Shown in pieces: positions 5,856 through 32,406 of a stretch of DNA of 48,278 bases. Below the pieces are notes generated by a model. The model saw nothing but the letters and a program-made list of their open reading frames with translations. It did not search any database and had not been told where the DNA came from. This DNA is from an uncultured Clostridia bacterium (GTDB lineage Bacteria > Bacillota > Clostridia > Christensenellales > CAG-138), in the NCBI GenBank assembly GCA_947168565.1, contig CAMVMM010000016.1, forward strand, positions 1 to 48,278. Reading direction: 5' to 3'. The position numbers were made by a program, and so were the translations under genes. Position 1 is the first letter of the stretch. Every line of letters begins with the position of its first letter.

Positions 5856-5891
5856 CAGAAGTAATTTAGTGTTTATGGCCAACACTTTTTA

Positions 5892-5900: not shown

Positions 5901-5933
5901 AATCTTTAGAAGAAATAACTAGGAGGATAGCTA

Positions 5934-7568: not shown

Positions 7569-7578
7569 TTATATTTGA

Positions 7579-9119: not shown

Positions 9120-9251
9120 TTTGGAGCGATGGGTATGCCGTTGCACATCGAAGTGTTTGGCGCAGATTTGAGGCAAGGAAACCGCAGATTTGCGAAGCGT
9201 GGTTCTGCGTTAGCCTCGTGTCTTCCAAGCACTTCGTTCTCCCGTTTCCGT

Positions 9252-9343: not shown

Positions 9344-9367
9344 ACCCACTTTTACGAAAGGAAGGTA

Positions 9368-9528: not shown

Positions 9529-9533
9529 AAAAA

Positions 9534-9839: not shown

Positions 9840-9843
9840 TAAA

Positions 9844-11211
9844 GTGGCAACGGTCAATATCATGAAGAATACCCGTTCGCAGACAAGAGCAGGGCTTGCG
9901 TTCATACTCTCCTATTGCAAGCGTGAAGCTAAGACACAGCATGAGGACAGAAAACTTGTTACCGGTGTCAACTGCGTTGCGGAGTACGCCTACCGCGAGA
10001 TGATGAACACGAAGCTTCAATACGGAAAAACAGACGGAAGAATGTTCTATCATCTTGTGCAATCCTTCTCGCCGGACGAGCGGATAACGCCGCAGAGGGC
10101 GCATGAGCTTGCAATCAAACTTGCGGAGCGACAGTTCCACGGCTTCGAGGTTCTCGTTGCAACCCATGTGGACAAGCATCATATCCATTCGCATTTCGTT
10201 GTGAACAGCGTTGGCTGTGAGAGCGGAAGGAAGCTGCACGCCGATAATGATTTCATCCCAAAGCTGCGCGAAGCATCCGACAGGCTGTGTATGGAGTTCG
10301 GTCTCTCTGTTGTGAACGGCAAGAAGAAGGATAAGCAAGCGGAGCGTATGTCCTCAAGAGAATACAGAGCGGCGGATCGCGGTGAGAGCTGGAAGATGAG
10401 ATTGATCGTAACGATCGAGGAAGCGATGGCTGCGGCAAGGTCGAGAAGCGAGTTCATTCGCATGATGGAAGCCGAAGGCTACGGTGTGCGCTGGACTGCG
10501 GAAAGAAAGTACATCACCTATACAACACCCGACGGTCAAAAATGTCGGGACAACAAACTGCATGAAGAAAAATTCTTAAAGGAGAATATGGAAAATGAGT
10601 TCGGAATACGGAATGAGATCTTCTTCGGAGCTGAAAGCTCTTGCGAAGAAAAGCATACAGACAGCGGAGCAAGCACAGCCCTGCGTAGCGGTAACGGAAC
10701 CCAATTGGAAAGCGATGATAGATACGCAGAAAGCGCAGCTCGCAATGCTGGCAAAGCTTATGGATACGGCGGCAGCGCTTTCAACGAAGGACGAGATCAC
10801 GGAGTATATGCAGCGGCAGATAGTCGTGCTGACGGAGCATACGGAGAACAGCTATCTTATAACAGAGGAGTTTCAGACGGCGATGAAGCAGGCGGCAGCG
10901 GAATACACCGCCGCGATGAAAACGGTACTCTCGGATATGTCGAAACAGGCTGGGAGTATGAAAGAGAGCTTCTCGCGGGAGCTCTCTCGGACGAAGGATA
11001 CGATGAAGAAGTATATGCGGAAGATATTCTGGATAACGATAATCCCTTCGGCGATCACGGTCATCTATTATCTGACTCCGCTTATCTTATCGCTGATCTC
11101 TCGAATCTTTTAGACGAAGACCGCAGAGTGGAGGACAGCACCACAATGCCCAAGCAGAGAAAAGAGAAGAAAAGGAATCAAAGTCACGGTCCCAATATGG
11201 GCGGTATGTGA
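9844..11211 (+). CDS. MOBP-family relaxase (mobilization nuclease)
   Basis: The protein has 455 residues, starting at GTG 9844 with AGGAGGTGA at 9831-9839. It nicks one strand at oriT and pilots it during transfer. The relaxase domain fills about 1-230: Tyr24 in LAFILSYCKREAKT is the likely nucleophile, and the metal-binding HxHxH motif is His113, His115 and His117 (HHIHSHFVVNS). After about residue 245 the sequence becomes Gly-, Asp-, Glu- and Ala-rich, apparently disordered and without family resemblance, which fits dual coding: another complete gene (10595-11113) lies in the +1 frame here. The frame stays open to 11211 and ends in a basic tail (KQRKEKKRNQ). The nuclease call is secure; a function for the tail is not. 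Confidence 0.9.
   Translation: MATVNIMKNTRSQTRAGLAFILSYCKREAKTQHEDRKLVTGVNCVAEYAYREMMNTKLQYGKTDGRMFYHLVQSFSPDERITPQRAHELAIKLAERQFHGFEVLVATHVDKHHIHSHFVVNSVGCESGRKLHADNDFIPKLREASDRLCMEFGLSVVNGKKKDKQAERMSSREYRAADRGESWKMRLIVTIEEAMAAARSRSEFIRMMEAEGYGVRWTAERKYITYTTPDGQKCRDNKLHEEKFLKENMENEFGIRNEIFFGAESSCEEKHTDSGASTALRSGNGTQLESDDRYAESAARNAGKAYGYGGSAFNEGRDHGVYAAADSRADGAYGEQLSYNRGVSDGDEAGGSGIHRRDENGTLGYVETGWEYERELLAGALSDEGYDEEVYAEDILDNDNPFGDHGHLLSDSAYLIADLSNLLDEDRRVEDSTTMPKQRKEKKRNQSHGPNMGGM
10595..11113 (+). CDS. Small coiled-coil membrane protein embedded in the relaxase gene (MobB-like arrangement)
   Basis: The protein has 172 residues, encoded wholly inside the relaxase gene in the +1 frame. ATG 10595 follows AAAGGAG at 10578-10584. 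The composition looks like a real protein. There is an N-terminal Gln/Ala/Lys-rich segment, helical stretches typical of a coiled coil (about 30-135, with repeated Met/Leu/Ala heptad-like spacing), and a C-terminal membrane anchor (FWITIIPSAITVIYYL, about 144-159, continuing hydrophobic to the end). RSF1010 mobB is likewise embedded out of frame in mobA and has a membrane segment that aids transfer. Homology to MobB is not claimed; only the layout matches. In this stretch the relaxase frame is the low-complexity one, so this frame probably constrains the DNA. Confidence 0.75.
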   Translation: MSSEYGMRSSSELKALAKKSIQTAEQAQPCVAVTEPNWKAMIDTQKAQLAMLAKLMDTAAALSTKDEITEYMQRQIVVLTEHTENSYLITEEFQTAMKQAAAEYTAAMKTVLSDMSKQAGSMKESFSRELSRTKDTMKKYMRKIFWITIIPSAITVIYYLTPLILSLISRIF

Positions 11212-11232
11212 CGGAAAGGATAAAAGGATAGT

Positions 11233-11508
11233 ATGAAAACCGAAGGTCAGATCTATTTGGAAACGGGCATACTAGGCGGCTATATGCCAGAGAAGGTTAA
11301 AAAGCGAACTCTCGACGGAGGGAAGATCATGCCGATCTTCCGCGATACGGTATGCACGATCGATAACGGGAGGATCGAGTTGAGCCGTGAAATGCTTGTC
11401 GGCGGCAGATGCTTTCACGTGCGTTCAATCTTCAATGAAAAAGCAAACCGAACGGTAACCGAGCAGATGATAAGAGTCATCGACGGCGAACTTTCAAAAT
11501 CGGAATAA
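11233..11508 (+). CDS. TnpW-like small transposon-encoded protein
   Basis: The protein has 91 residues. The start at 11233 follows a GGAAAGGATAAAAGGA stretch (11214-11229), 21 bases after the relaxase stop. The C-terminal half (VGGRCFHVRSIFNEKANRTVTEQMIRVIDGE, residues about 55-86) resembles the core of TnpW-type proteins of clostridial transposons, which have a short strand with TYxVxSxF followed by a helix with xxLIE. Those proteins have no proven biochemical role. Its place between relaxase and serine recombinase fits. The assignment rests on weak pattern similarity and synteny. Confidence 0.55.
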   Translation: MKTEGQIYLETGILGGYMPEKVKKRTLDGGKIMPIFRDTVCTIDNGRIELSREMLVGGRCFHVRSIFNEKANRTVTEQMIRVIDGELSKSE

Positions 11509-11584
11509 TTGGTCTGGATAATCCAAAGCCGATGCGGTATACTGTCCGTACCGTATCGGCTTGCCCAGGAAAGGAGAGAAAGAA

Positions 11585-13348
11585 ATGGCAAGTCAAGAAA
11601 AATACACCATTCTCTACGCTCGCTTGAGTCAGGAGGATATGCAAAAGAAAAACGGCAAGGAGGATGATTCAAACTCCATCCAGAACCAAAGGCTGCTGCT
11701 TGAAAAGTACGCCGCGAACCACGGCTTCGGCAACACAATATTTATCTCAGACGACGGCTACACCGGAACGAACTTCAACCGTCCGGGCTGGCAGGAGGTA
11801 ATGGAACTGGTCGAATCGAACCAAGTGGCAACGATCGTAGTCAAGGATATGTCCCGCCTCGGCAGGGAGTACCTTCAGGTCGGTCAGTACACCGAGCTTA
11901 TCTTCCCGAGCTACGGCATTCGCTTCATAGCGATAAACGACGGTGTCGACAGTCTGTACGAGAATACGAACGACTTCACACCGTTTCGGAACATCATCAA
12001 CGAGTTCTACGCCAAGGATTGCAGCAAGAAGGGAAGAACATCCGTGCGAGTGAAAGCGGAAACCGGCGCGCGAATAGCATCCCGACCTTGCTATGGGTAC
12101 ATGAAGGATCCCGATGATCCGAAACGCCACATCGTTCCCGATGAAGAAACCGCATGGGTAGTCAAGCATATCTTCGCACTGTGCGCTCAAGGCAGCGGAC
12201 CGGCGCAGATAGCAAAGCAGCTCCAGCGGGAACAGATCGTCAATCCTTCCAACCACTACTACCGCAAGTACGGTAAAGCGATGACCGGACTCGATACAAG
12301 CAGACCATACCGCTGGACTTCGGCAACCGTCGCTTCGATCCTTGAAAATGAAACCTATCTCGGGCATACGATCAATCTGCAGTACACAACGATCTCATAC
12401 AAGAATAAGCAGAGGATCATGCGCCCCGAATCGGAACAGCTTCGCTTCGAGAACACGCACGAACCGCTCGTGGACAAGCAAACATGTGATATAGTGCAGG
12501 ACATACGAAAGCATAAGCGCCGCCATGCCAAATTCGCGGAGCAGAATATGTTCTCCGGGCTGGTGTACTGTGCGGACTGCGGAAGAACGATGGTGCTTCA
12601 TAGGTCGCACACGATGGATGCCGTCAATAACAACTTTATGTGCTCAACATACAAAAAGAAGGGTAAGGAAGTTTGCTCCGCACACTATATCCGTGAGGTT
12701 GAACTTGCCGCCATTCTGCTGGACGATATCCGCAGGATCACGCACTTCGCACGGCAGAACGAGCAGCGCTTTGCAAGGTATATCGGCATGAAGCAAGGCA
12801 AGGAAGCAATGCGGGAGATCAAGGCTCTGCAAAAGAAAGCCTCTGATATGGAGAAGCGCAGAGCGGAACTTACCGCGTTATTCAAAAGGCTCTACGAAGA
12901 CAATGTGCTCGGCAGGATCACAGACGAACAGTTTCGTCTGCTGTCAAAGGATTATACCAAGGAGCAGGAGGAAATCGAAGAAGCACTTCCGAAAGTGAAA
13001 GAACGCCTTCAAACGCTGAAGGACTCTGCTGCAAATGTCAGCCGATTCCTCGAGAATGCTCGCAAGTACACCGAGATCAATGAACTCACTTGCGAGATAC
13101 TGCATATCTTCATCCAAAGGATCGAGGTCGGAGAACGCTCGAAACGCTACTCGCGAAGCGCAGCTCAGGAGATCAGGATCTACTACCGCGATATAGGGCT
13201 GATCGATGAAATGCCGGAAACGATGATAACAGCGGAGAGCCGTTCGGAAACGATAGCGCTCGAGGCAGCAGAAAGCGAAATGTCGGACGATGAAAAGGAT
13301 ATGCCTACAGCACAACCAACAAAACACGCAAGGATAGTTGTGGCATAA
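11585..13348 (+). CDS. Large serine recombinase (TnpX-like)
   Basis: The protein has 587 residues, the usual size for this family. The start is ATG 11585 with AGGAAAGGAG at 11568-11577; the longer frame start at 11561 would lack a site. The resolvase-type catalytic domain has the nucleophile Ser15 within YARLSQED, then DDGYTGTNFNRPGW and KDMSRLGREYLQVG. A recombinase domain follows, then a zinc-ribbon with Cys pairs (GLVYCADCGRTM, about 326-337, and FMCSTYKKKGKEVC). A long coiled coil comes next (about 395-500). It excises and integrates the element, usually with a GA crossover dinucleotide. It is the last gene of the element; a perfect-stem hairpin lies 26 bases after the stop. Confidence 0.95.
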   Translation: MASQEKYTILYARLSQEDMQKKNGKEDDSNSIQNQRLLLEKYAANHGFGNTIFISDDGYTGTNFNRPGWQEVMELVESNQVATIVVKDMSRLGREYLQVGQYTELIFPSYGIRFIAINDGVDSLYENTNDFTPFRNIINEFYAKDCSKKGRTSVRVKAETGARIASRPCYGYMKDPDDPKRHIVPDEETAWVVKHIFALCAQGSGPAQIAKQLQREQIVNPSNHYYRKYGKAMTGLDTSRPYRWTSATVASILENETYLGHTINLQYTTISYKNKQRIMRPESEQLRFENTHEPLVDKQTCDIVQDIRKHKRRHAKFAEQNMFSGLVYCADCGRTMVLHRSHTMDAVNNNFMCSTYKKKGKEVCSAHYIREVELAAILLDDIRRITHFARQNEQRFARYIGMKQGKEAMREIKALQKKASDMEKRRAELTALFKRLYEDNVLGRITDEQFRLLSKDYTKEQEEIEEALPKVKERLQTLKDSAANVSRFLENARKYTEINELTCEILHIFIQRIEVGERSKRYSRSAAQEIRIYYRDIGLIDEMPETMITAESRSETIALEAAESEMSDDEKDMPTAQPTKHARIVVA

Positions 13349-18619: not shown

Positions 18620-18985
18620 ATGAAGGATTTTGAGCTTGGAGCAATACAGGAGCGCTTTGCGGACATAGTTTGGGAGCATGAGCCCATCGCCTCCGGCGAG
18701 CTTGCGAAGAAGTGTGAAAAGGAGCTGAACTGGAAGCGGCCCACAACGTACACCGTGCTCAGGAAGCTTTGCGAAAAGGGGCTGCTTCAAAACAGCGACG
18801 GCATAGTAAGCTCGGTTATCTCGCGCGATGAGTTTTATTCCGCGAAAAGCGAGCATATAATCGAGGATTCGTACCGGGGCTCGCTCCCCGCGTTCGTGGC
18901 TGCGTTCATATCAAAAAAGAGCATCTCCGCCGAGGAGGCGGACGAAATACAAAAGCTTATAGACGCATTCAAAAAGGAGGGCTGA
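18620..18985 (+). CDS. BlaI/MecI/CopY-family transcriptional repressor
   Basis: The protein has 121 residues; AAAGGAG at 18607-18613 sets ATG 18620. The winged-helix pattern of the family is clear: LGAIQERFADIVWEHEPIASGELAKKC, then WKRPTTYTVLRKLCEKGLL with the recognition helix (about 40-58), then the C-terminal dimerisation helices (SAEEADEIQKLIDAFKKEG). The protein would be cleaved or released when the adjacent M56 sensor protease is activated. The M56 gene starts 2 bases after this stop and its ribosome site lies inside this gene's end, so both are co-translated. The inducing signal is unknown. Confidence 0.93.
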   Translation: MKDFELGAIQERFADIVWEHEPIASGELAKKCEKELNWKRPTTYTVLRKLCEKGLLQNSDGIVSSVISRDEFYSAKSEHIIEDSYRGSLPAFVAAFISKKSISAEEADEIQKLIDAFKKEG

Positions 18986-18987
18986 AA

Positions 18988-21393
18988 ATGAGCGGTTTGT
19001 TTTTGAAAATCATGAATATGAGCATCGCCGCCACATGGCTCATCCTGGCCGTGGTGCTCACAAGGGCTTTGTTAAAAAAGGCGCCGAAATGGATCACCTG
19101 CCTGCTGTGGGCGCTCGTTGCCTTTCGGCTTATCTGCCCCATCTCGTTTGAAAGCGTGCTGAGCGTTGTGCCGAGCCGCGAAACCATACCTGCGGATATC
19201 GCCGTGCGGCCCGATCCGGGCATAGATTCGGGAATCGCCGTTGTAAACCGGGCGGTAAATCCGGTCATTTCGCAGTCGCTTGCACCCGCTGCCGAAATCG
19301 GCGCAAATCCAATGCGCGGCATCGTTTCCGCCGCATCCATCGTGTGGGCGGTCGGCGCCGCAATAATGCTTGTGTACGCGCTGATAAGCTATTTAAGGCT
19401 TAAAGGAACCCTTGGAGCAAGCGTGCCGCTTGAAAAAGGGCTTGCCGCCTGCGATGAGGTCAAATCGCCGTTCATCCTCGGCTTATTCAAACCGATGATC
19501 TACGTGCCGTCCTCCATGAGCGGGCAAACGCTTGAAAACGTGCTCCGCCATGAAAGGGCGCATATAAAGCGGCTCGATCACTGGTGGAAGCCGCTCGGCT
19601 TCCTGCTTCTCTCGATCTACTGGTTCAATCCACTGTGCTGGGCGGCATATATCCTGCTTTGCCGCGATATCGAGCTTGCGTGCGATGAAAAGGTCATCCG
19701 CGATATGGACGGATCGGATATTGCTTCTTACTCACAGGCGCTGCTCGATTGCAGCCTGCCCAGAAAGCGCATCGCCGCCTGCCCGCTTGCCTTCGGAGAG
19801 GTGGGCGTGAAGGAGCGCGTTAAGGGCGTTTTGAGCTATAAAAAGCCCGCATTCTGGATAATTATGATCTCCGTTGCCGCCTGCGCGGTGCTTGCCGCCT
19901 GCCTGATGACCGATCCCAAGAGCAGCTTTGCGCTAAAAAGAGCGGATATCGAAAAGGTTACTTACTACAACGCCTTTACGGACGGCGATCCACTCATGGG
20001 CGAGCTGAACGCGGAGCAGACAGACGAATTGGCGGAGCGGTTTTCCGCCGTCCGCGAGGCGAGGCGGAGCGATGTCTACGCCGGGCAAACGCCGGGCTAT
20101 AAGCTCACCGTGCAGATGAAAAACGGCTCGTTCGTGTATGCAAACGGCTATAACGCCTCCTTGGATATGGCGGAGATAGTGATGAACGGAAAAAGCTATG
20201 CGGTATCGGATGCGGAATTTGCTTCGTACCTGCGGAAGGTCTGCTCCGGCGCTATGCTGCACGCGATAAGCTATGAGCTTGGCGAAACAGCGGAGTATTT
20301 CACAGGCACACCCACCGAGGCCGGGGCGGGAGATACGGTTGAAATAAGAACCGCGGTGCTGTACGATGCGGATATCCACGTTTACGCTGACGGAGTTGAA
20401 ATAGAAAAAACTCATTACGACAGCGATTATTGGGGCTATTCCTTCGTGATGCCGGATAAGGAGGTAAAGGTGAGCGCAAGGTTTTTCGGCAAGGAAGAGA
20501 TGGGCAGCGGCGAAACCGAGCATATCGCCTCGCTGCGGAAGCTGTATCCGGAATACTTCGACCTGCCAGCCTCGGATGGGCTGGAGGTCTACGTGTGGCA
20601 GTTGGCTGCGGGCAGCTATTCGTTCGGACTTCTGCCGGGAACGATCCGAGAAAGAACCTTTGCCGAATTATTGAATCTCAAGGGAGTCACCAAAAAGGAG
20701 ATGAGGGCGATCCTTTCAACCTACGATATAGACGAAAGCAGCATTACCATCTATCCGTGGCAAAACCCGATCTCAAGCTATGTCGGCGAATACTGGATCA
20801 GAATGCCCTACGAAACGGAAGCCATGGCGGAAAGGCGCAGGCAGCAATTTGTTGAAAAAATAAGGCAGATGCTCTTCGGCGAACCGAAAATATGGAGCCG
20901 CGAACTGCCGAATCAGGGGATGCAGGTGAAAACGGCGGTTGCTTTCACCACGTGCGTCACCGAATACGATAAGGTGTCGGACTGCCTGAATGCTGACAGG
21001 CTTTCTCTAAGCGCAAATTGGCATCTGCCCGTGTATAAGCTCGATACACAGGAGGAGCTGACCGAGTTCATGATAAACCATTGGCATATTTTTGACCTTC
21101 ACTCCGAATATGACGGGCTTCCCTCCTTCCGCGCCGTAACGGAGGAATACGACGATGCGTTTTTTGCCGAGCATTCCGTGATACTCGCCTACGTGAGTTC
21201 ATCTCAAAGCAGCTCCTACCGCTATGCGCTCCAAGGCGTTTCAACGCAGGGATCCGCGCTGACGCTGAATATAGCGCGCACGAACGATCCCGAGGTGTTC
21301 GACGAGATGGCTGCTGGCTGGTTCGTGTTTGCGGAGGTGCTGAAAACGGAGATAGCGGAATACACGATCTTCGACGCTTTGATGAACAATTGA
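18988..21393 (+). CDS. M56-family (BlaR1-like) membrane metalloprotease with unusual C-terminal sensor region
   Basis: The protein has 801 residues. The N-terminal third is a BlaR1/MecR1-type gluzincin protease with about five membrane segments (including ATWLILAVVLTRALL, WITCLLWALVAFRLI and AFWIIMISVAACAVL), a zinc motif HERAH at 188-192 and the downstream ligand region RDIELACDEKVIRD. It has no penicillin-binding domain. After the last membrane segment (about residue 305) come roughly 490 extracellular residues: a small domain ending near SYLRKVCSG (about 415), a segment with DADIHVYADGVEIEKTH and FVMPDKEVKVSARFF, and two further stretches I do not recognise. Signal detection probably lies there, followed by cleavage of the BlaI-type partner. 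The start follows AAGGAGG at 18974-18980. Confidence 0.88.
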   Translation: MSGLFLKIMNMSIAATWLILAVVLTRALLKKAPKWITCLLWALVAFRLICPISFESVLSVVPSRETIPADIAVRPDPGIDSGIAVVNRAVNPVISQSLAPAAEIGANPMRGIVSAASIVWAVGAAIMLVYALISYLRLKGTLGASVPLEKGLAACDEVKSPFILGLFKPMIYVPSSMSGQTLENVLRHERAHIKRLDHWWKPLGFLLLSIYWFNPLCWAAYILLCRDIELACDEKVIRDMDGSDIASYSQALLDCSLPRKRIAACPLAFGEVGVKERVKGVLSYKKPAFWIIMISVAACAVLAACLMTDPKSSFALKRADIEKVTYYNAFTDGDPLMGELNAEQTDELAERFSAVREARRSDVYAGQTPGYKLTVQMKNGSFVYANGYNASLDMAEIVMNGKSYAVSDAEFASYLRKVCSGAMLHAISYELGETAEYFTGTPTEAGAGDTVEIRTAVLYDADIHVYADGVEIEKTHYDSDYWGYSFVMPDKEVKVSARFFGKEEMGSGETEHIASLRKLYPEYFDLPASDGLEVYVWQLAAGSYSFGLLPGTIRERTFAELLNLKGVTKKEMRAILSTYDIDESSITIYPWQNPISSYVGEYWIRMPYETEAMAERRRQQFVEKIRQMLFGEPKIWSRELPNQGMQVKTAVAFTTCVTEYDKVSDCLNADRLSLSANWHLPVYKLDTQEELTEFMINHWHIFDLHSEYDGLPSFRAVTEEYDDAFFAEHSVILAYVSSSQSSSYRYALQGVSTQGSALTLNIARTNDPEVFDEMAAGWFVFAEVLKTEIAEYTIFDALMNN

Positions 21394-22617: not shown

Positions 22618-22647
22618 TTGACAGAACAGGGATATATGTGATACAAT
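22618..22647 (+). promoter_or_regulatory. Strong promoter of the NRPS operon
   Basis: TTGACA (22618-22623), 18 bases, then TACAAT (22642-22647) preceded by TG at 22639-22640 (extended -10). AT-rich DNA lies just upstream (22600-22617). The predicted transcript starts near 22654, giving a leader of about 150 bases. Confidence 0.8.
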
Positions 22648-22659
22648 TACAGAAGGTGA

Positions 22660-22754
22660 AATGCCGTGGAGCTTCATTTTGAAGCGCAAAAAACACCCTC
22701 GCCGCGCCGCGAACTTGCGGTGAAAACGAGGATTTGATCTTACCGCACGGCATT
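22660..22754 (+). promoter_or_regulatory. Structured 5' leader of the NRPS transcript (three-way junction fold)
   Basis: AATGCCGTG (22660-22668) pairs perfectly with CACGGCATT (22746-22754), closing a domain with two arms. The first arm is GCTTCA-TTT-TGAAGC (22671-22685). The second is CCTCG/CGAGG (22697-22701 with 22727-22731), capped by CCGC/GCGG (22707-22710 with 22717-22720). It begins within a few bases of the predicted transcript start. I compared it by eye with c-di-GMP, FMN and cobalamin riboswitch cores and found no match. It could be a riboswitch-like regulator or a stabilising 5' fold. Confidence 0.6.
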
Positions 22755-22806
22755 ATTATGTTAAGAAATAAAATAGCAAAAATCATATAAGGAGTAGCTT
22801 TTTGCC

Positions 22807-25800
22807 ATGAATTTTTTAAATAATTTCAGCAGCATCGCGCATAAATGCGCGGATAAAGCTGCGATAGTTGACCATGACGGCCTGCGGGAAACCTCCTACG
22901 CCCGCCTGGACGAGCTGAGCGGAAAGGCGGCGGCGAAGCTTCTCAAAATGGGCTTTTTGCCGGGAGATCCCGTGATGATCTGCCTTGGCAGGCGCATGGA
23001 GTACGTTGCGGCATATATCGGAGCGCTGAAGGCGGGCTGCGTCGCGGTTCCGGTGGTTCCGGATTATCCGCAGGAGCGTTTGGAGCACATTCGGCGCGAT
23101 TGCGAGGCGGTTTACGTGATCCGCGACGACTTTTTTTCGGATATCGAAGCTTTTGACCCTGCCGAACCCGTAATTCTGCAGGACGGCGCGCCCGCCGTGC
23201 TGGTGTATACCTCCGGCTCCACGGGCAAGCCAAAGGGAATACCGCATTCCGTGCGCTCGGTTGCCGATGCCGTGCGGCGCAGCAGCCTGCTTTTGGAGGA
23301 TCTGGAGCCCATAGCTTTCGGCGCAACCGCCCCGCTGTCCTTCGTGGCGTTCGTGCTGGAATATCTCAGCGTGCTGAACATGGGCGGCTGCTCGCATATT
23401 CTTGAGGATTCCGTGCGCAGGGATATGCGCCTTATGGAAGCCTATTTTGAAAAGCACGGTATAAGCTGTGCATTCATAAGCCCGCAGATGCTCAAGCTGT
23501 ATCGCGGTTCAAACGGCATGAAGCGCGTTATTGCGGGCAGCGAGGCGCTCAAAAACGCATACAGCGAAAGCTACACGATCTATAATGCGTACGGCATGAG
23601 CGAAACGCTTGCCACGGCGATGTATTTCGTTGTGGATAAGCCGTATGAAAACACCCCGATCGGCAAGCCCGCGGAGGGCGTTGAACTTTTCCTTTTGGAT
23701 GAAAACGGAAACGAGGCCGCAAAAGGGCAGGAGGGCGAGATCTGCCTTCTGGGGTATTTTGCCGAGGGCTATCTGCATCAAAACAGCGATGCGTTCGTCA
23801 AGCAGGCGGACGGCAGAGTGCTTCTGCATACGGGCGATATCGGCCGACTGAATGAGAACGGCGACCTTGTGTATCTGAACAGGCGCGACTGGATGGTAAA
23901 GATAAACGGTCAGCGCGTTGAAACGGGCGAGATAGAATCGCGCCTGTGCGCCTGCAGGGGCGTGACCGGAGCCGCGGTGAAGGCCTTCGACGATGCGATG
24001 GGGCAGAAGTATCTTGCGGCGTATTATACCGCGCAGGGCAGCGTTGCCCCCGCCGCGCTTGCCGCAGAACTGAAAAAGGTTCTTCCGAAATATATGCTGC
24101 CGAGGTATTATAAACGCCTTGAAAAAATGCCCGTCAACGCAAACGGAAAGCTCGACAGGCTTGCGCTGCTCCCGCCGGAGATCGACGATTATAAGAGTGC
24201 ATACGCCGCGCCGGAAAACGAGCTCCAGGCCGCGCTTTGCGGCGCGATCGAGAAGCTGCTTGACTGCGGCAGGGTCGGCGTGGACGACGACTTTTTCAGC
24301 CTGGGCGGCGATTCCATAAAGGTGCTTGCGCTGATCTCGGATTCCGGCATGGATGAGCTCACTCCGGATATGATCCTGCGCGGCAGAACGGTGCGCGGAA
24401 TATGCGCTCTGCTTGGAGGCGCGGGGAAAACGGAGCGGATCGCGCATAAGGCCGAGCTTTCGGAATTCTATCCGCTCACCGAGGCGCAGCTTGGCGTGTA
24501 TCTTCAGTGCGTTGAGGAGCCTCAATCCATGATGTATAATATCCCGATGTGCTGCGAGCTCGGCAAGAATATCGACCCCGAGCGCTTCGCCTCCGCCGTA
24601 AAAGCCGCGCTTGAAAAGCATAGTGCGCTCGGCGTGCGCATCGGCAAAGCTGCGGACGGCACTCCGGGCATGATGCCTGCGGACTTCACGGCGCAGGTTC
24701 CTGTAAAGCCGGTCGAGCGCCTTGAGGACGAGATAAAAGCCTTCATCCGACCCTTCGATATTGAAAACGAGCCGCTTTTCCGTGCGGAAATTGTAAAAAC
24801 CGCGAATGGAAACAGCTTTTTATTCGATATTCATCACCTCGTGTTTGACGGCAGCTCCGTGAAGGTGCTGCTTGAGGACGCCGCAAAAGCCTACGACGGC
24901 GGGCGGCTTGCGGACGAGGAGCTGACTATATTCGATATTTCGGAATACGAAAAAACCCTTAAACAGAGCGAACGCTATAAGGCGGCGCAGGATTACTTCG
25001 ATAAGCTTCTGAGCGGCGTGGATACCGATTCCCGCCCCATTCGGGATCACGTCGGAGCTTCCTTGCAAAAGGGAGCTGGCAGGATAGTTATCCCATTGGG
25101 CGCAGAGCTTGCGATAGACCATGCCGAGAATTTTTCAAAGGAGCGCGGCATAACCGAGGGAACGCTCTTCCTTGGAGCCTTTGCCTATACTCTTGCCAAA
25201 TTCAACGGCGCGAATGAGGCGCTGTTCTGCACCGTGAACAGCGGCAGGCACGATCCGCGTCTTAACGGCGCGATAGGCATGTTTGTGAAAACGCTTCCGT
25301 TCTATATGCGCACGGATAAGGGCGAGCGCGTAGTCGATTACCTTGAGCGCACACAGAAGCTGCTTTTTGAGGAGATGGGGCATGACTGCATCTCCTTTGC
25401 CGAGCTTGCGCGGAATTATGCCGTCAGGCCGGATATCAGCTTTGTTTATCAATCCGAGCTGCTCAGAGGCGCGCTCACCCGCGACGGCGCAATTGAAGCC
25501 CGCTCGATAGAAACGGGCAGCACACAATTCGATATCAGCGTGATGGTGCTCAAAACGAAAAACGGCTATGAGCTTTCCGTGGATTACAGAACCGAGCTCT
25601 ATTCGGCCGCAATGATGCGCGGCTTTGCCGATATGCTCATAAAGGTGGCTTCGGAGCTTATGACTGCCGAGAGAATGGGCGATATTTCCTTCGTTTCTCA
25701 TTCCGCCGCCGAGACCCTTGCGCTCTTCAACCTTACCGCAAGGAGCTATGAGGTTTCGGATATAGTGACCATGTTCAGAAGGCAGGCGAAGGCAGCGCCC

Positions 25801-28800
25801 GATAATACCGCCGTTATCTGCAATGAGCGCACCCTGACCTACCGCGAACTCGACGATCTTTCCGACCGCATCGCAGCCTGCCTTGCGGGAAGGGGCATCG
25901 GAAAAGGGGACGCGGTGTCGGTGCTAATAAACAGAAGCGAGTATATGCCCGTTTCATCCATCGGCGTGCTGAAAAGCGGCGCAATGTATCAGCCCCTCGA
26001 TCCCTCCTATCCGCCGGAGCGGCTTGAATTTATGATCTCCGATGCGGGAGCGAAGCTGCTTATTGCCGACAGGCAGCTTATGGACAGGGTGCCGGGCTAT
26101 AAGGGGGAAGTGCTGTTCACGGATGAGATCGCCGCGCTTGCGCAGCCCGCAAAGCTTCCCGAAGGCCCTTCTCCCGAGGACGGCTTTATACTGCTCTACA
26201 CCTCCGGCTCCACGGGCACTCCAAAGGGAGTGATCCTCGAGCACCGCAACCTGTGCAATTTCTGCCGCTGGTACTGCGAATACTTTGCGCTCGGCGCCGA
26301 TTCCACCGTTGCCGCGTACGCAAGCTACGGGTTCGACGCCAATATGATGGACACCTATCCCGCGCTCACCTGCGGCGCAAGGGTCGTGATAGTGCCGGAC
26401 GAGATCCGACTTGATCTTGCCGCGATAGAGCGCTGCTTCAATGAAAACGGCGTTACCCACAGCTTCATGACCACGCAGGTGGGAAGGCAGTTCGCGGAGT
26501 ATTACACCGGCAGCACGCTGAAGCATCTTTCCGTGGGCGGCGAAAAGCTGACCCCCATCGCTCCGCAGGGCAAGAGCTTCACCCTTTATAACGTTTACGG
26601 TCCCACCGAGTGCACGGTGCTTGTGACCGCATTCCCGGTGGACAGGCTCTATACCTGCGTGCCGATCGGCAAGCCCGTGGCAAACGTGCGGCTCTACGTG
26701 GTCGACGATGCCGGCAGACTGCTCCCGCCGGGAGCCACAGGTGAGCTTTGGATCGCCGGCAGGCAGGTGGCGCGGAGCTATCTGAACCGACCGGAAAAGA
26801 ACGCGGAAGCGTTCGTTAAAAACCCGTTCTCGGACGATGCCGAGTATTCCCGCGTATATAAAACGGGCGACGCGGTCCGCTGGAATCAGCGCGGCGAGAT
26901 AGATTTCGTCGGCAGAGGCGACGGGCAGGTGAAGATACGCGGCTTCCGCATCGAGCTTACCGAGGTCGAGGGCGTGATACGCGAGTTCCCAGGAGTTGCG
27001 GACGCCACGGTGCAGGCGTTTGATCTGCCCTCCGGCGGCAAATACCTTGCGGCTTATATCGTGTGCGATGGAAAGCTGGATAAGGACGCGCTGCGTGCGT
27101 TCATCCTGGAGCGCAAGCCGCCGTATATGGTTCCGGAGGCGATAATGCAGATCGAGCGCATCCCTCTGAACCAGAATCAGAAGGTGAACAGGCGCGCCCT
27201 GCCCATGCCCGAAAGGAAGGCGGAAAACGCCGTTCCGCCGCAGACCGAGCTGCAGCGGGAGATCTTCGATATAGCCGCGGAGGTGATAGGCCACGGCGAT
27301 TTCGGAGTGAATACCGATCTTTATGAGGCGGGACTCACCTCCATAGCCACCCTCAAGCTGAACGTGCGGCTTTCCGAAAGATTCAAGGTGCCGGTAAAAT
27401 CGGCCGATCTGAAGGAAAACAGCACCGTTGAAAAGCTGGAGCGCTTTTTCCAAGGCGCGGACGGCGGAGCGGAGGAGAAATTCGAGATGATGGCGGATTA
27501 CGCCCTCACCAAGACGCAGGAGGGCATATTCGTTGAATCCATCGCCAAGGCGGACAGCACCGTTTACAACGTGCCGCTGCTGCTTGAGATCAGCCCCGAG
27601 CTCGACACGGAAAGGCTGAAAAAGGCGATCGTGGCGGCGGTGAACGCGCATCCCTATATCAAGACCCGCCTGTTTATGAATGAAAACGGGGACGTGCGCC
27701 AGCGCAGGCTGGACGGCGACTTCTCCTTCGATGAAAACGAAATAGAGCTTATCGGCACCGACCGGATCGAAAGCGTGGCGGGAGAGCTTGTGAAGCCCTT
27801 CAAGCTGCTCGGCGGCAGGCTGTTCCGCGTGAAGCTTATTAAGGCGGATCGCAGCTATATGCTGCTGGAGATGCACCACGTAATCAGCGACGGCACCTCG
27901 CTTAATATACTGCTTGACGACATAGAGCGCTCGTACCGCGGCGAAAAACCGGAGGCGGAGACTTTCAGCGGCTACGAGGTGGTGCTGAACGAGCAGAGGC
28001 TCCGCGAGGGCGAATACCTTGAAAAGGCCAAGAGCTATTACGAAAACCTGCTTGACGGCGTGGACACGGACTGCCTGCCGGTTGCGGATATACGCGATAT
28101 GCGGCCGGACGGAGTGGCGCAGGGCTCGCTTTTGAGCGAAAACGTTACCGTGGAGGACGTTAAGCATTTTTGCGAGGTGAACCGCTGCGGCATGAACGCC
28201 TTCTTCACGTCCGTGTTCGGCCTTGTGCTCTCGCGCTTCAACGGAATGCAGCAGAGCGCCTTTGCCGGCATCTACAACGGCAGAAACGATTCCCGCCTTG
28301 CACGCACCGTGAGCATGCTCGTCAAGACCCTGCCCATAGTTGCAGCCGCCTCAAACGATAAAACGATTGGAGAATACGTTTCCTCAATGAACGGCCAGCT
28401 TCTTGACAGCATGGCAAACGATATCTATTCCTTTGCGGAGATCAGCCGCGAATACGGCGCCAAGGCGGACGTGATGTTCGTTTATCAGGGCGATGAGATG
28501 GAGCCGGACAGCTTCTGCGGCTTCCCCGCGCGCATAGTGCCGCTCAGCCTCGACACCGTGAAGGCGCCGCTGAACGTGTTCGTGTACCTGAAGGACAACA
28601 GGGTGCGCTGGGCAAGCGAATACAATTCCGGCCTGTACAGCGCGGAGCTGATGCAGGGGTTGCTTGAGGCGCTGGACAAGGCCGCCGAGGAATGCCTGAA
28701 AAAGACGCTGCTCGGGGACGTTTCCATCCTTACCGAGAAGGCAAGGAGGATGGTAGACGGCTTCAACGAAACGGATAACCCCTATGACGATGCCAAAACC

Positions 28801-31716
28801 GTGGTGGATCTTTTCACGGTGCAGGCTCAAAAAACGCCGGAGCGCACCGCCGTGGTGTATGAAAACAGGAGCTATACCTATTCTCAGCTTGAGCTGCTCA
28901 CGCGAAGGCTTGCGCAGCACCTCACGGCAAAGGGCGTTGGAAGGGAAACCGTGACCGCCGTGCTCATCCCAAGGTGCGAGCACATGGTGATCTGCTCGCT
29001 CGGCGTGCTTCGCGCGGGCGGAGCGTATCTGCCGCTCGATCCCACCTACCCGCCGGAAAGGCTGAATCTTATGGTGAAGGATTCCGGAGCCGGGGTGCTT
29101 ATCACCACGCCGGAGCTGAACGCCATGATCTCGGACGAATTCACCGGCCCCAGGATAATGACGGACGAGATTGCGCAAATGGAGGAGCTGGGCATCGAGC
29201 TTACCGCACCCAAGCCCGAAAACCTGTTCGTGATGCTGTATACCTCCGGCTCCACCGGCACCCCGAAGGGCGTTATGCTGGAGCATAGAAACGTGTTTGC
29301 ATTCTTCACCTGGTATATCAGAAAAACCGGAGTGGATGAAAACACCCGCGCCTCATCCTACGCAAGCTATGGCTTCGACGCCTGTATGCAGGATCTTTAC
29401 CCCGCGCTGATGTGCGGCGGCTGCGTATACATTATTCCGGACGATATGAGGCTGGATCTGAACCGTCTCAGGGAGTATTTCTGCGAAAACGGAATGACCC
29501 ACGCCTTTATGACCACCCAGATCGGCAGGCAGTTTGCCATAATGGAACGGGTGCCGAGCATGAAGCTGCTCATCATGGGCGGCGAAAAGCTTGTGCCCTT
29601 TGCACCGCCGGATTATCTTGTGATGAACGGCTACGGCCCCTCGGAATGCGCGATGGGCTCAAGCATGTATCCCATCACGGCTGTTGAAAAGGACGTGCCG
29701 ATCGGCCGTCCGCTGGATAACCTTAAAATGTACGTCGTGGATCCGCAGGGCAGGATGCTTCCTCCCGGCGCCACGGGCGAATTGTGGATCGCGGGCCCGC
29801 AGGTTTCAAGGGGCTACCTGAACAGACCCGAGCAGACCGCTGCGGCTTATACGGCAAACCCGTTCTGCAGCGACGAAAAGCACGCAAGAGTATACCATAC
29901 CGGCGATATGGTGCGGTGGCTGCCGGACGGCAACCTTCAGTTCATAGGCAGGCGCGACGGCATGGTGAAGGTGCGCGGCTTCCGCATCGAGCTTACCGAG
30001 GTGGAGGAGGTCGTGCGCCGCTTCCCGGGCATCAAGGACGCCACAGTTGCCGCCTTTGACGATAACGCGGGCGGCAAATACCTTGCGGCGTATCTCGTGT
30101 CCGATTCCAAGCTTGATATAGAGAAGCTCAAGCAGTTCATTCTTGCGGAAAAGCCGCCGTACATGGTGCCGGCGGTTATGATGCAGATAGACGCCATTCC
30201 CTACACGCAGAATCAGAAGGTGAACAGAAGAGCCCTTCCGCAGCCCGAAAGAAGATCCGGCGGCAGGGAGCCCGCAAACGATATGGAGCGGAGGCTCTGC
30301 GAATTTTTCGCGCAGGCGCTTGGCGTTGAAAAGGTTTATGCGGACGATGATTTCTTTGAAATGGGCGGCACCTCGATCTCGGCAGCCAAGATCGCCATGA
30401 AGTGCTCCATGGATGATATACCGGTAGTCTATAAGGATATTTTCGACTACACCACGCCGCACAGCCTCTCCGAATTCGTGCGTGCGCAGTCCGGAGAAGC
30501 GACCCCGGCCGTTTCCGAGTCCGAGCCGGCCGCGCAGGCGGAGCAGAGCTCTGCGGAGCATGAGGAGCTTTGGAGCGTGCTTGAGCATAACCGCGCCGCC
30601 GAGGTGAACGACGTGGTTTATTCGGATATAGGCAGCGTGCTCGTGACCGGCTCCACGGGCTTCCTCGGCACCCATATCATCAGGGAGCTTATAGAGGGCA
30701 GCACCTGCCGCATCTTCTGCCTTGTGCGCGGAAATAAGGAATCCTCCGCACAGCAGCGCCTTATGGCGATGCTTGAGTATTATTTCGACGATACCTACGA
30801 GCAGCTTCTGGGCGACCGCCTTGTGGTGGTGGAAGGCGACATTCTGGATGAAGATCTCATGGATAAGCTGAAGGAGCTTCCCTTCGATACCCTCATAAAC
30901 TGCGCCGCGATAGTAAAGCATTTTACCGCCGACGACGAGTCCGACAGGGTGAATTTCCACGGCGTTGAAAACCTTATAGATATCTGCCTCAAGCTGAATA
31001 AAAAGCTTATCCAGACCTCAACCATCAGCGTTGCGGGCATGAGCTCCGCCGATCCGATGCCGGTTATGACGGAAAGCATGCTTTCCTTCGGGCAGAGCAC
31101 GGATAATAAATACATAAATTCCAAGTGGAAGGCGGAAAGGGCGGTGCTCACCGCCGTGCGGGACAGGGGGCTTCGCGGAAAGGTGATACGCCTTGGCAAC
31201 CTCATGAGCAGGTATCACGACGGCGAGTTCCAGGCCAATTTCAAAACGAACGGCTTCATGAGCCGCCTGAACGCCTACGTGCAGCTCGGCTGCTACAGCG
31301 TGAACGCTTTGGATGCGAACGTTGAGTTTTCATCCATAGACTATACCGCAAGGGCCGTGCTTGCGCTTGCGGGAACGCCGGATAAATTCACCGTGTTCCA
31401 TGCCAATAACTGCCACGCCGTGCACATGGCGAACGTGCTGGAGGCGATGGCGAAGCAGGGCGTCAGTATCGACGTTGTGAACGATGAGGAATACATGGCA
31501 AGGTTCGATGCCGCCATGAGGGATGAGTCAAGAAACCTTGAGGTTTCCGCGCTCATATCCTATAATTCGCACGACGAGCTGCTTCTTCCCGTGGAGGCGG
31601 ATAATTCCTTCACCGTGAAGGCGCTCTATCACCTCGGCTTCTCTTGGCCGATAGTGAGCGTGGATTATATCGAGCGCACGGTCAGGATGCTGATCGAGCT
31701 GGACTATTTCTCCTGA
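22807..31716 (+). CDS. Nonribosomal peptide synthetase, A-T-C-A-T-C-A-T-R, reductive release
   Basis: The protein has 2969 residues. Module 1 has A1 (A3 motif YTSGSTGKPKG about 134, NAYGMSE about 261) and T1 (Ser503 in GGDSIK). C1 follows (HHLVFDG at 676-682), then A2 (about 985-1470; binding-pocket Asp1177), T2 (Ser1512, LTSI) and C2 (HHVISDG from 1690). A3 (about 1985-2480; Asp2191), T3 (Ser2523, GGTSI) and a thioester reductase domain complete it (VTGSTGFLG about 2614; YxxxK at 2769-2773). A1 has Val180 in place of the Asp that binds the alpha-amino group, so it probably loads a non-amino carboxylic acid. Hand-aligned pocket codes are DAMFSGVVLK (A2) and DAQFIGGMGK (A3); I cannot assign substrates. 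Release with NAD(P)H should give an aldehyde or alcohol. AAGGAG lies 12 bases before ATG 22807. Confidence 0.96.
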   Translation: MNFLNNFSSIAHKCADKAAIVDHDGLRETSYARLDELSGKAAAKLLKMGFLPGDPVMICLGRRMEYVAAYIGALKAGCVAVPVVPDYPQERLEHIRRDCEAVYVIRDDFFSDIEAFDPAEPVILQDGAPAVLVYTSGSTGKPKGIPHSVRSVADAVRRSSLLLEDLEPIAFGATAPLSFVAFVLEYLSVLNMGGCSHILEDSVRRDMRLMEAYFEKHGISCAFISPQMLKLYRGSNGMKRVIAGSEALKNAYSESYTIYNAYGMSETLATAMYFVVDKPYENTPIGKPAEGVELFLLDENGNEAAKGQEGEICLLGYFAEGYLHQNSDAFVKQADGRVLLHTGDIGRLNENGDLVYLNRRDWMVKINGQRVETGEIESRLCACRGVTGAAVKAFDDAMGQKYLAAYYTAQGSVAPAALAAELKKVLPKYMLPRYYKRLEKMPVNANGKLDRLALLPPEIDDYKSAYAAPENELQAALCGAIEKLLDCGRVGVDDDFFSLGGDSIKVLALISDSGMDELTPDMILRGRTVRGICALLGGAGKTERIAHKAELSEFYPLTEAQLGVYLQCVEEPQSMMYNIPMCCELGKNIDPERFASAVKAALEKHSALGVRIGKAADGTPGMMPADFTAQVPVKPVERLEDEIKAFIRPFDIENEPLFRAEIVKTANGNSFLFDIHHLVFDGSSVKVLLEDAAKAYDGGRLADEELTIFDISEYEKTLKQSERYKAAQDYFDKLLSGVDTDSRPIRDHVGASLQKGAGRIVIPLGAELAIDHAENFSKERGITEGTLFLGAFAYTLAKFNGANEALFCTVNSGRHDPRLNGAIGMFVKTLPFYMRTDKGERVVDYLERTQKLLFEEMGHDCISFAELARNYAVRPDISFVYQSELLRGALTRDGAIEARSIETGSTQFDISVMVLKTKNGYELSVDYRTELYSAAMMRGFADMLIKVASELMTAERMGDISFVSHSAAETLALFNLTARSYEVSDIVTMFRRQAKAAPDNTAVICNERTLTYRELDDLSDRIAACLAGRGIGKGDAVSVLINRSEYMPVSSIGVLKSGAMYQPLDPSYPPERLEFMISDAGAKLLIADRQLMDRVPGYKGEVLFTDEIAALAQPAKLPEGPSPEDGFILLYTSGSTGTPKGVILEHRNLCNFCRWYCEYFALGADSTVAAYASYGFDANMMDTYPALTCGARVVIVPDEIRLDLAAIERCFNENGVTHSFMTTQVGRQFAEYYTGSTLKHLSVGGEKLTPIAPQGKSFTLYNVYGPTECTVLVTAFPVDRLYTCVPIGKPVANVRLYVVDDAGRLLPPGATGELWIAGRQVARSYLNRPEKNAEAFVKNPFSDDAEYSRVYKTGDAVRWNQRGEIDFVGRGDGQVKIRGFRIELTEVEGVIREFPGVADATVQAFDLPSGGKYLAAYIVCDGKLDKDALRAFILERKPPYMVPEAIMQIERIPLNQNQKVNRRALPMPERKAENAVPPQTELQREIFDIAAEVIGHGDFGVNTDLYEAGLTSIATLKLNVRLSERFKVPVKSADLKENSTVEKLERFFQGADGGAEEKFEMMADYALTKTQEGIFVESIAKADSTVYNVPLLLEISPELDTERLKKAIVAAVNAHPYIKTRLFMNENGDVRQRRLDGDFSFDENEIELIGTDRIESVAGELVKPFKLLGGRLFRVKLIKADRSYMLLEMHHVISDGTSLNILLDDIERSYRGEKPEAETFSGYEVVLNEQRLREGEYLEKAKSYYENLLDGVDTDCLPVADIRDMRPDGVAQGSLLSENVTVEDVKHFCEVNRCGMNAFFTSVFGLVLSRFNGMQQSAFAGIYNGRNDSRLARTVSMLVKTLPIVAAASNDKTIGEYVSSMNGQLLDSMANDIYSFAEISREYGAKADVMFVYQGDEMEPDSFCGFPARIVPLSLDTVKAPLNVFVYLKDNRVRWASEYNSGLYSAELMQGLLEALDKAAEECLKKTLLGDVSILTEKARRMVDGFNETDNPYDDAKTVVDLFTVQAQKTPERTAVVYENRSYTYSQLELLTRRLAQHLTAKGVGRETVTAVLIPRCEHMVICSLGVLRAGGAYLPLDPTYPPERLNLMVKDSGAGVLITTPELNAMISDEFTGPRIMTDEIAQMEELGIELTAPKPENLFVMLYTSGSTGTPKGVMLEHRNVFAFFTWYIRKTGVDENTRASSYASYGFDACMQDLYPALMCGGCVYIIPDDMRLDLNRLREYFCENGMTHAFMTTQIGRQFAIMERVPSMKLLIMGGEKLVPFAPPDYLVMNGYGPSECAMGSSMYPITAVEKDVPIGRPLDNLKMYVVDPQGRMLPPGATGELWIAGPQVSRGYLNRPEQTAAAYTANPFCSDEKHARVYHTGDMVRWLPDGNLQFIGRRDGMVKVRGFRIELTEVEEVVRRFPGIKDATVAAFDDNAGGKYLAAYLVSDSKLDIEKLKQFILAEKPPYMVPAVMMQIDAIPYTQNQKVNRRALPQPERRSGGREPANDMERRLCEFFAQALGVEKVYADDDFFEMGGTSISAAKIAMKCSMDDIPVVYKDIFDYTTPHSLSEFVRAQSGEATPAVSESEPAAQAEQSSAEHEELWSVLEHNRAAEVNDVVYSDIGSVLVTGSTGFLGTHIIRELIEGSTCRIFCLVRGNKESSAQQRLMAMLEYYFDDTYEQLLGDRLVVVEGDILDEDLMDKLKELPFDTLINCAAIVKHFTADDESDRVNFHGVENLIDICLKLNKKLIQTSTISVAGMSSADPMPVMTESMLSFGQSTDNKYINSKWKAERAVLTAVRDRGLRGKVIRLGNLMSRYHDGEFQANFKTNGFMSRLNAYVQLGCYSVNALDANVEFSSIDYTARAVLALAGTPDKFTVFHANNCHAVHMANVLEAMAKQGVSIDVVNDEEYMARFDAAMRDESRNLEVSALISYNSHDELLLPVEADNSFTVKALYHLGFSWPIVSVDYIERTVRMLIELDYFS

Positions 31717-31737: not shown

Positions 31738-32406
31738 GTGAATATCAAGGTGTACACGGCCGACGTGGATCGGCTTATGGATGCGGAGCTTTTCGCGCGG
31801 CTCTACCGCAGCGTTTCATCGGAGCGCAGGGCAAAGGTGGACCGCATGATATTCGCAAAGGATAAGCGCCTTTCACTCGGGGCGGGAGCGCTGCTTGAAG
31901 CGGCTCTCGCCGCCGAAGGCGTGGATGAATTTGCCTTTACCACAAAAGCAAATCTCAAGCCCTGCCTTGCCGGCGGCGGCATATTCTTCAATCTTTCCCA
32001 TTCCGGCGCCAGGGTAATGTGCGCCGTTTCGGATCATGAGATAGGCTGCGACGTGGAGAAGGTAACGGATACCGATATGGAGATAGCGCGGCGGTTCTTC
32101 TATGCCGAGGAGTACGCCTCGCTCAAGCGCTGCGAGGACGGGGCGAGCCTGAACGATCTGTTTTTCCGATACTGGACTTTAAAAGAAAGCTTTATGAAGG
32201 CAACGGGACAGGGCTTTAGTCTGCCGCTCGATGAGTTTTGCATCGTTTTGAATGGCGATCGCGTTACCGTGCGGCAGAACGTGGACGAAAGAGCGTATTA
32301 TTTCAAGGAGTTTTGTTTAAACGACGGATATAAGTACGCGATATGCAGCGTGGATAAGCCTGCGGACGGAGCGGAGCTGAAAACGGCCTGCGAGCTGCGG
32401 CTTTAA
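31738..32406 (+). CDS. Sfp-type 4'-phosphopantetheinyl transferase
   Basis: The protein has 222 residues, starting at GTG 31738, 21 bases after the NRPS stop. The Sfp family motifs are present: FFNLSHSG (about 82-89), IGCDVEKV with the metal-binding Asp and Glu (about 101-108), and YWTLKESFMKATGQG (about 144-158). It transfers phosphopantetheine from CoA to the three carrier-domain serines of the NRPS. Direct adjacency in one operon makes that its likely dedicated role. The start codon is weakly supported (AGGTAAG upstream), so translation may depend on coupling to the NRPS. Confidence 0.94.
   Translation: MNIKVYTADVDRLMDAELFARLYRSVSSERRAKVDRMIFAKDKRLSLGAGALLEAALAAEGVDEFAFTTKANLKPCLAGGGIFFNLSHSGARVMCAVSDHEIGCDVEKVTDTDMEIARRFFYAEEYASLKRCEDGASLNDLFFRYWTLKESFMKATGQGFSLPLDEFCIVLNGDRVTVRQNVDERAYYFKEFCLNDGYKYAICSVDKPADGAELKTACELRL

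What the first reader, a model, noticed from the sequence alone, without database searches (positions are those of the whole stretch)
22807..31716. NRPS loading A domain lacks the amino-group-binding Asp; predicted N-acyl dipeptide aldehyde synthetase
Aligned by hand with GrsA, A2 and A3 keep the binding-pocket Asp (D1177, D2191), but A1 has Val180. A domains without it usually activate acids with no alpha-amino group (aryl, hydroxy or fatty acids). With A-T-C-A-T-C-A-T-R architecture and a reductase at the end, the product should be an acyl cap plus two amino acids released as an aldehyde. Reductase-ending NRPSs of gut Clostridia are known to make peptide aldehydes that inhibit cysteine proteases, or pyrazinones when the N-terminus is free. 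A blocked N-terminus here would favour a stable aldehyde and exclude pyrazinone cyclisation.
Basis: partly seen in the sequence, partly recalled or inferred. Interest (0 to 1): 0.85.

Follow-up and report, generated by a model that had tools for sequence, protein, structure and literature searches.

The report
Gut peptide-aldehyde synthetase with acyl-loading domain
A gut-bacterial assembly-line enzyme that most likely caps two amino acids with an organic acid and releases them as an aldehyde, a kind of molecule known to block proteases; its unusual first domain is real and is shared by relatives in other gut bacteria.

Summary
One intact 2969-aa NRPS (22807-31716, +) reads A-T-C-A-T-C-A-T-R, with a phosphopantetheinyl transferase 21 bases downstream. 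Against GrsA, A1 has Val180 at D235; A2 and A3 keep Asp. Among sampled relatives, V or I stands there in 40 of 40 A1-type domains, D in 177 of 178 other A domains. Two further signatures: the A5 proline is Met in A1 and non-Pro in 40 of 40 A1-type domains, Pro in 177 of 178 others; pocket residue 330 is G/A/S in 31 of 40 against 0 of 178. Five A1-type domains checked later agree on the first two in 5 of 5, on the third in 3 of 5. A1 fails the curated amino-acid-adenylation cut-off; A2 and A3 pass. So A1 most likely activates an acid without an alpha-amino group, giving an N-acyl dipeptide aldehyde. The acid and both amino acids remain unknown, and McyG shows that Val there does not exclude an amino acid. 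Gut N-acyl dipeptide aldehydes are already known; what may differ is loading by a dedicated A-T module rather than the C-A-T-C-A-T-R order described in print. The two founding papers could not be read.

The parts
22807..31716 (+). NRPS, 2969 aa, A-T-C-A-T-C-A-T-R
22807..24192 (+). A1 loading adenylation domain, code VALFIGAATK, lacks Asp235 and the A5 Pro
23344..23346 (+). codon of Val180 (GrsA D235 position)
23596..23598 (+). codon of Met264 in NAYGMSE (GrsA P325 position; LgrA P483 by counting in the alignment)
24211..24426 (+). T1 carrier domain (GGDS motif)
24451..25686 (+). C1 condensation domain, HHLVFDG; would join the acyl group to the first amino acid
25732..27216 (+). A2, code DAMFSGVVLK, Asp1177 present
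27247..27462 (+). T2 carrier domain
27487..28701 (+). C2 condensation domain, HHVISDG
28777..30261 (+). A3, code DAQFIGGMGK, Asp2191 present
30292..30501 (+). T3 carrier domain (GGTS motif)
30607..31713 (+). R, NAD(P)-dependent thioester reductase, GxxGxxG and YxxxK present
31738..32406 (+). 4'-phosphopantetheinyl transferase (Pfam ACPS), 21 bases after the NRPS stop
22618..22647 (+). promoter-like site TTGACA-18-TACAAT (11 of 12) upstream of the NRPS; the scan as a whole is not above chance (7 found, 5.9 expected)

Best explanation
A self-contained N-acyl dipeptide aldehyde synthetase. The PPTase arms the three carrier domains. A1 adenylates a carboxylic acid without an alpha-amino group (most likely a medium-chain or branched fatty acid) and loads it on T1. 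C1 joins it to the amino acid chosen by A2, C2 adds the amino acid chosen by A3, and R reduces the thioester with NAD(P)H to free an aldehyde. Because the first amine is acylated, the product cannot close to a pyrazinone, and the aldehyde can act as a covalent reversible inhibitor of serine or cysteine proteases. Shown: architecture, intact motifs, the pocket changes and their conservation. Inferred: substrate class, product, target.
For: Architecture and motifs. D235 to V/I in 40 of 40 A1-like domains against D in 177 of 178 others; the 10 first-in-ORF A domains that are not A1-like all keep D (two of these ORFs, L052 and L085, are cut or split at the start). A5 Pro lost in 40 of 40, kept in 177 of 178 others; the matching Pro is Met in the keto-acid domain StsA, and LgrA P483M gives a small rise in keto-acid activity (PMC11253843, passages). 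Position 330 G/A/S in 31 of 40 against 0 of 178, as expected if the pocket is enlarged. Five A1-like domains checked later: V/I and non-Pro in 5 of 5. TIGR01733 cut-off 317.4: A1 233.4, A2 392.6, A3 372.5. The 40 lie on one side of a branch, SH-aLRT 100. Known products: N-octanoyl-Met-Phe-H and ruminopeptin (PMC8518294, passages).
Against: McyG keeps Val at this place and binds L-Phe. The A1 model is closest in fold to amino-acid A domains such as LgrA and GrsA, though that reports only the general fold. C1-type domains do not group with the starter C domains of C-A-T-C-A-T-R synthetases, so the C-domain tree gives no support for an acyl donor. The third signature fails in 9 of 40 and in 2 of 5 later cases. 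One relative of the same A-T-C-A-T-C-A-T-R order, L066, has a D-type first domain, so the order alone does not imply an acyl cap. No exporter gene adjoins this copy. No code in hand gives the substrate.
Confidence: 0.72

Rival explanations
1. A1 loads an alpha-keto or alpha-hydroxy acid (as StsA or enniatin synthetase do), so the cap is a 2-oxo- or 2-hydroxyacyl group.
For: An aliphatic residue at 235 together with Met in A5 is the pair reported for StsA (PMC11253843, passages). A sister A-T-C protein of the same genome lies beside a D-2-hydroxyacid dehydrogenase.
Against: No ketoreductase domain was found in the NRPS; no 2-hydroxyacid dehydrogenase among the 16 neighbour ORFs scanned with Pfam (6, 10); the A5 residue varies (M, C, A, S, L) among A1-like domains.
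Confidence: 0.15
2. A1 activates a hydrophobic amino acid despite Val, as McyG does, making a tripeptide aldehyde with a free amine.
For: McyG precedent; best fold matches are amino-acid domains.
Against: A5 Pro also lost, 330 small, TIGR01733 cut-off not met; the first A domains of the 8 A-T-C-A-T-R ORFs in the set and of L066 all keep Asp.
Confidence: 0.08
3. A1 loads an aryl acid, giving an aryl-capped dipeptide aldehyde.
For: Asp is absent in the aryl-acid domain DhbE too (PMC11253843, passages).
Against: The same passage gives Asn235 and a distinct A5 motif for DhbE; A1 has Val and NAYGMSE. No aryl-acid synthesis gene among the 16 neighbour ORFs scanned.
Confidence: 0.05

Closest known systems
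Gut C-A-T-C-A-T-R aldehyde/pyrazinone family (Guo et al. 2017)
   Same: reductase-ended dimodular gut NRPS; dipeptide aldehyde is the protease-inhibiting form (PMC10979478, passages)
   Different: described there as beginning with C; this one begins with an A-T loading module. Original paper not held
Ruminopeptin pathway (Ruminococcus bromii)
   Same: gut NRPS, N-acylated dipeptide aldehyde (PMC12327764 and PMC8518294, passages)
   Different: original paper not held, domain order not checked. Ruminococcus MAG loci L057 and L070 are C-A-T-C-A-T-R; that they are rup-like is inference
BGC0001686, N-octanoyl-Met-Phe-H (gut Clostridium)
   Same: acylated dipeptide aldehyde made by a gut NRPS (PMC8518294, passages)
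   Different: sequence and domain order not available here
AusA/aureusimine synthetase
   Same: top NCBIfam match of the NRPS; reductase release; the PPTase has a weak AusB match, 54.7 of 225 bits
   Different: 1359 of 2500 bits needed; from recall AusA is A-T-C-A-T-R with a free amine, leading to pyrazinones
OaaA/OaaACP/OaaC fatty-acid amide system (Coprococcus eutactus)
   Same: an adenylation domain loads a fatty acid on a carrier for a C domain (PMC13142362, introduction)
   Different: free-standing proteins, no peptide, no reductase; OaaA sequence not compared
StsA keto-acid A domain
   Same: aliphatic residue for D235 and Met for the A5 Pro (PMC11253843, passages)
   Different: works with a ketoreductase domain (PMC11355689, passages); none found here

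Membership tests
reductase-terminated NRPS making peptide aldehydes | C-terminal NAD(P)-dependent thioester reductase after the last T domain | tested here: met
   NAD_binding_4 at residues 2613-2851, GxxGxxG and YxxxK
reductase-terminated NRPS making peptide aldehydes | intact A, T and C motifs in two amino-acid modules | tested here: met
reductase-terminated NRPS making peptide aldehydes | aldehyde product detected | not testable with these tools
   needs expression and mass spectrometry
gut C-A-T-C-A-T-R family as described in PMC10979478 | begins with a C domain | tested here: not met
   begins with A-T; description seen
N-acyl dipeptide aldehyde synthetases | acyl initiation (starter C domain or acyl-loading module) | tested here: inconclusive
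   loading A-T module with non-amino-acid signatures; chemistry not shown
fatty-acid ligases (CoA ligases; FAAL) | match to a fatty-acid ligase model over its cut-off | tested here: not met
   of the 25 of 50 families shown for A1, the best fatty-acid ligase model is PRK06187 with 167 of 476 bits; the amino-acid A model scores higher, 233. No FAAL-specific model was seen, so FAAL proper is untested
alpha-amino-acid A domains | Asp at GrsA 235, Pro in A5, TIGR01733 over cut-off | tested here: not met
   A1: Val, Met, 233.4 of 317.4
beta-amino-acid A domains | D235 holding the beta-amino group, as in VinN and engineered TycA (PMC11253843, passages) | tested here: not met
   Val at 235 and no D or E in the code VALFIGAATK

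The most novel reading that the evidence does not exclude
The Asp-less, A5-Pro-less loaders form one clade of acyl-activating NRPS domains that serves both capped peptide-aldehyde synthetases and stand-alone A-T-C proteins of gut bacteria, with a signature (V/I at 235, non-Pro at 325, mostly small 330) that predicts acyl-capped products from sequence, and with varied pockets that set different acyl caps.
Probability: 0.45. Interest if true: 0.6.

Novelty: new variant of a known kind. Interest (0 to 1): 0.42.

Why it matters
Acylated dipeptide aldehydes of gut bacteria inhibit cathepsins and proteasomes in vitro and induce a stress response in a gut epithelial cell line (PMC8518294, passages). 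Whether a cluster makes a stable capped aldehyde or a pyrazinone decides its biology; pocket positions that separate loading from extending domains would let this be read from sequence. The window is a compact two-gene case (NRPS plus PPTase), convenient for expression.

Tried and rejected
C-domain tree (29 of 38 C domains after an A1-like domain, 28 of 37 first-in-ORF C, 29 of 81 other C, 9 after a D-type first A, 3 of the A-T-C proteins): I expected C1 to join the starter C domains if both take acyl donors. It did not; C1-type domains fall mostly in groups of their own, a few elsewhere. Treated as neutral. L018's C1 is labelled Cstart there only because its gene is split into two ORFs.

Gene neighbourhood: MATE-exporter-like genes occur in the fetched flanks of 24 of 32 relatives (30 with the A-T-C-A-T-C-A-T-R order plus L049 and L116; 4 of the proteins checked as MatE; several flanks are cut by contig ends), but not in this window; the best match elsewhere in the genome is only 26% identical. 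Of 11 window neighbour genes, the PPTase recurs in 26 of 88 loci and the ABC ATPase in 10 (probably generic); the other nine recur in 0 to 2.

Structure: A1 model pLDDT 89, pTM 0.85; Foldseek's listed matches are general A domains.

Substrates of A2 and A3: no predictor or reference set at hand. By tree path A2 is nearest to the first A domains of L057 and L080; a Leu-like guess through ruminopeptin is weak. The A3 code DAQFIGGMGK recurs at the last position only in L018, and as DAQFVGGMGK in the middle module of L016. No prediction is offered.

Literature: Guo et al. 2017 and Schneider and Balskus 2018 are not held, so whether this loading architecture was described there is unknown. By title and start of abstract, searches listed no paper on Asp-less loading domains in gut aldehyde synthetases. 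One search did find the architecture string inside a longer one of an Aspergillus terreus NRPS (PMC4274970, passage), and C-A-T-C-A-T-R as the usual order of the gut/pyrazinone family (PMC10979478, passages). Reviews name gut peptide aldehydes only in general terms (PMC12282076 and PMC10794557, passages).

Full report
What is there. The window is contig C16 of a 2.36-Mb draft genome. The ORF 22807-31716 is uninterrupted, 2969 aa. Pfam finds three AMP-binding, two condensation and three carrier stretches and a C-terminal NAD_binding_4 reductase; own-domain scans give the order A-T-C-A-T-C-A-T-R. Motifs are intact: two HHxxxDG, three carrier serines, GxxGxxG and YxxxK in R, and the A10 lysine in each A domain. 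A PPTase gene starts 21 bases after the NRPS stop. The genes on either side of the pair are a ZIP transporter and, on the other strand, a histidine acid phosphatase.

The loading domain. From these 88 loci and the window, 95 NRPS-like ORFs were classed: 31 A-T-C-A-T-C-A-T-R (window included), 33 C-A-T-C-A-T-R, 8 A-T-C-A-T-R, 4 A-T-C and 19 others, many cut by contig ends. Of the 31, 28 begin with a scorable A1-like domain, 2 with an A1-like fragment (L016, L054) and 1, L066, with a D-type domain, DFMMDGGISK. Of 218 A domains long enough to score, 40 are A1-like; all 40 have V or I at 235. Of the other 178, 177 have D; the exception (L055, G) also has Arg for the A10 Lys.

Two further signatures. 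The A5 proline (GrsA P325) is replaced in 40 of 40 A1-like domains (M 15, C 9, A 8, S 6, L 2) and kept in 177 of 178 others. Counting along the alignment, this is LgrA P483. A review says the equivalent residue is Met415 in the keto-acid domain StsA, that StsA also has an aliphatic residue for D235, that M415P abolishes StsA activity, and that LgrA P483M gains a small keto-acid activity (PMC11253843, passages). Residue 330, one of the GrsA pocket residues, is G, A or S in 31 of 40 A1-like domains and in 0 of 178 others; A1 has Ala. The stretch 321-332 aligns without gaps in 40 of 40, and 232-240 in 38 of 40. Five A1-like domains examined only afterwards (L018, L113, L114, L115, L116) have V/I at 235 and no Pro in A5 in 5 of 5, while 330 is small in 3 of 5; the L016 fragment lacks the first region and has Met in A5.

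Independent checks. TIGR01733, the amino-acid adenylation model, has a 317.4-bit cut-off: A1 233.4, A2 392.6, A3 372.5. A tree of 96 A domains (all 40 A1-like and 56 of the 178 others) puts the 40, the four A-T-C proteins included, on one side of a branch with SH-aLRT 100 (quick method, long branches warned of). The A1 model (pLDDT 89) is a normal A-domain fold, nearest LgrA and GrsA. A C-domain tree did not unite C1 with starter C domains, so it neither helps nor refutes.

Interpretation. The simplest reading is an acyl-loading module: acid to T1, two amino acids, reductive release. Such products are known from gut bacteria: N-octanoyl-Met-Phe-H from BGC0001686 and ruminopeptin (PMC8518294 and PMC12327764, passages). 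An acylated amine cannot condense with the aldehyde to a pyrazinone. The main caution is McyG, with Val at this place and L-Phe-AMP in its crystal (PMC11253843, passages). The StsA-like pair leaves a keto- or hydroxy-acid cap open. Fatty-acid loading by an adenylation domain onto a carrier for a C domain has a gut precedent in the Oaa system (PMC13142362, abstract, introduction and section 9), but I could not compare OaaA itself. L066 shows that the order A-T-C-A-T-C-A-T-R also occurs with an ordinary Asp-bearing first domain, so the pocket, not the order, carries the prediction.

Distribution and place among the known. Full-length relatives occur in named Lachnospiraceae such as Sporofaciens musculi (L020) and Petralouisia muris (L025) and in MAGs whose titles name goat, water buffalo or 'Lapin' samples. 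In the window's own order, 7 of 396 genomes, the own one included, have a match to A1 at 1e-65; in three of the other six (G011, G305, G379) the match lies in an A-T-C protein, and in G100 it is an extender-type domain. The relative with the highest best-segment identity is L018 from a goat rumen (64%); it shares the A3 code, but its contig ends before R. In 24 of 32 relatives a MATE-exporter-like gene lies in the fetched flank; the window has none, so this copy is a compact form. The usual order described for the gut aldehyde/pyrazinone family is C-A-T-C-A-T-R (PMC10979478, passages); this one starts with an A-T loader instead. I therefore file it as a new variant of a known kind, with the caution that Guo et al. 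2017 and Schneider and Balskus 2018 could not be read and may already include this form.

Noticed in passing
L099:8510-11482 (-), own genome contig C1: A second protein of the loader clade: an A-T-C protein (990 aa, code VAKFYGAFSK, C motif NHIFTDG) in a polysaccharide locus beside a D-2-hydroxyacid dehydrogenase, flippase-like gene, DegT aminotransferase and acyltransferase. It might N-acylate an amino sugar.
   Followed up: partly
18620-21393 (+): A BlaI-type repressor and an M56 (BlaR1-like) sensor lie upstream of the NRPS; a close pair (E 6.5e-41 and 1.2e-119) also adjoins the PPTase and NRPS in L096, another genus of the family, and L046 has a weaker M56 match (4.4e-13) near its NRPS. The genome has one other M56 ORF. 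Possible regulator of the cluster.
   Followed up: partly
22654-22806 (+): The leader between a good promoter match and the NRPS start folds into a closed multi-hairpin structure (-43.7 kcal/mol, z -2.6, 2 of 200 shuffles as good); one copy in the genome, no Rfam match in the window.
   Followed up: partly
L020:18928-20697, L096:1677-3452, L019:18565-23775: Genes beside the NRPS in relatives: MatE proteins, in 2 of 4 checked with a C-terminal HATPase_c_2 domain (L020, L096), SpoIIE phosphatases, a GH3-type ligase and a glyoxalase-like gene. An exporter fused to an anti-sigma-kinase-like domain is odd.
   Followed up: no
L079:414-3404 (-) and 5925-12461 (+): A stand-alone A-T-C protein of the loader clade sits close to a C-A-T-C-A-T-R synthetase and a PPTase.
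   Followed up: no
L066:9932-18994 (+): A-T-C-A-T-C-A-T-R synthetase whose first A domain is D-type (DFMMDGGISK): predicted to start with an amino acid, unlike the window.
   Followed up: partly
13-13348: Left part of the window: type I restriction genes, AbiJ-like and PIN genes, a Schlafen-type gene, a MobA relaxase and a serine recombinase, with lower G+C at the far left: mobile element or defence island.
   Followed up: partly
L028, L035, L078: Synthetases of this family on contigs labelled archaeal (Methanomethylophilaceae, Thermoplasmata, Euryarchaeota MAGs; the L035 contig is 232 kb): gene transfer or misbinning.
   Followed up: no
28777-30261 (+): The last A domain lies in a different A-domain clade from the A3 of L019, L021, L022, L029, L048, L059, L062, L068, L074 and L096 (code DVLTNGGIGK occurs 15 times in the set), as if the aldehyde-forming module had been exchanged.
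   Followed up: partly
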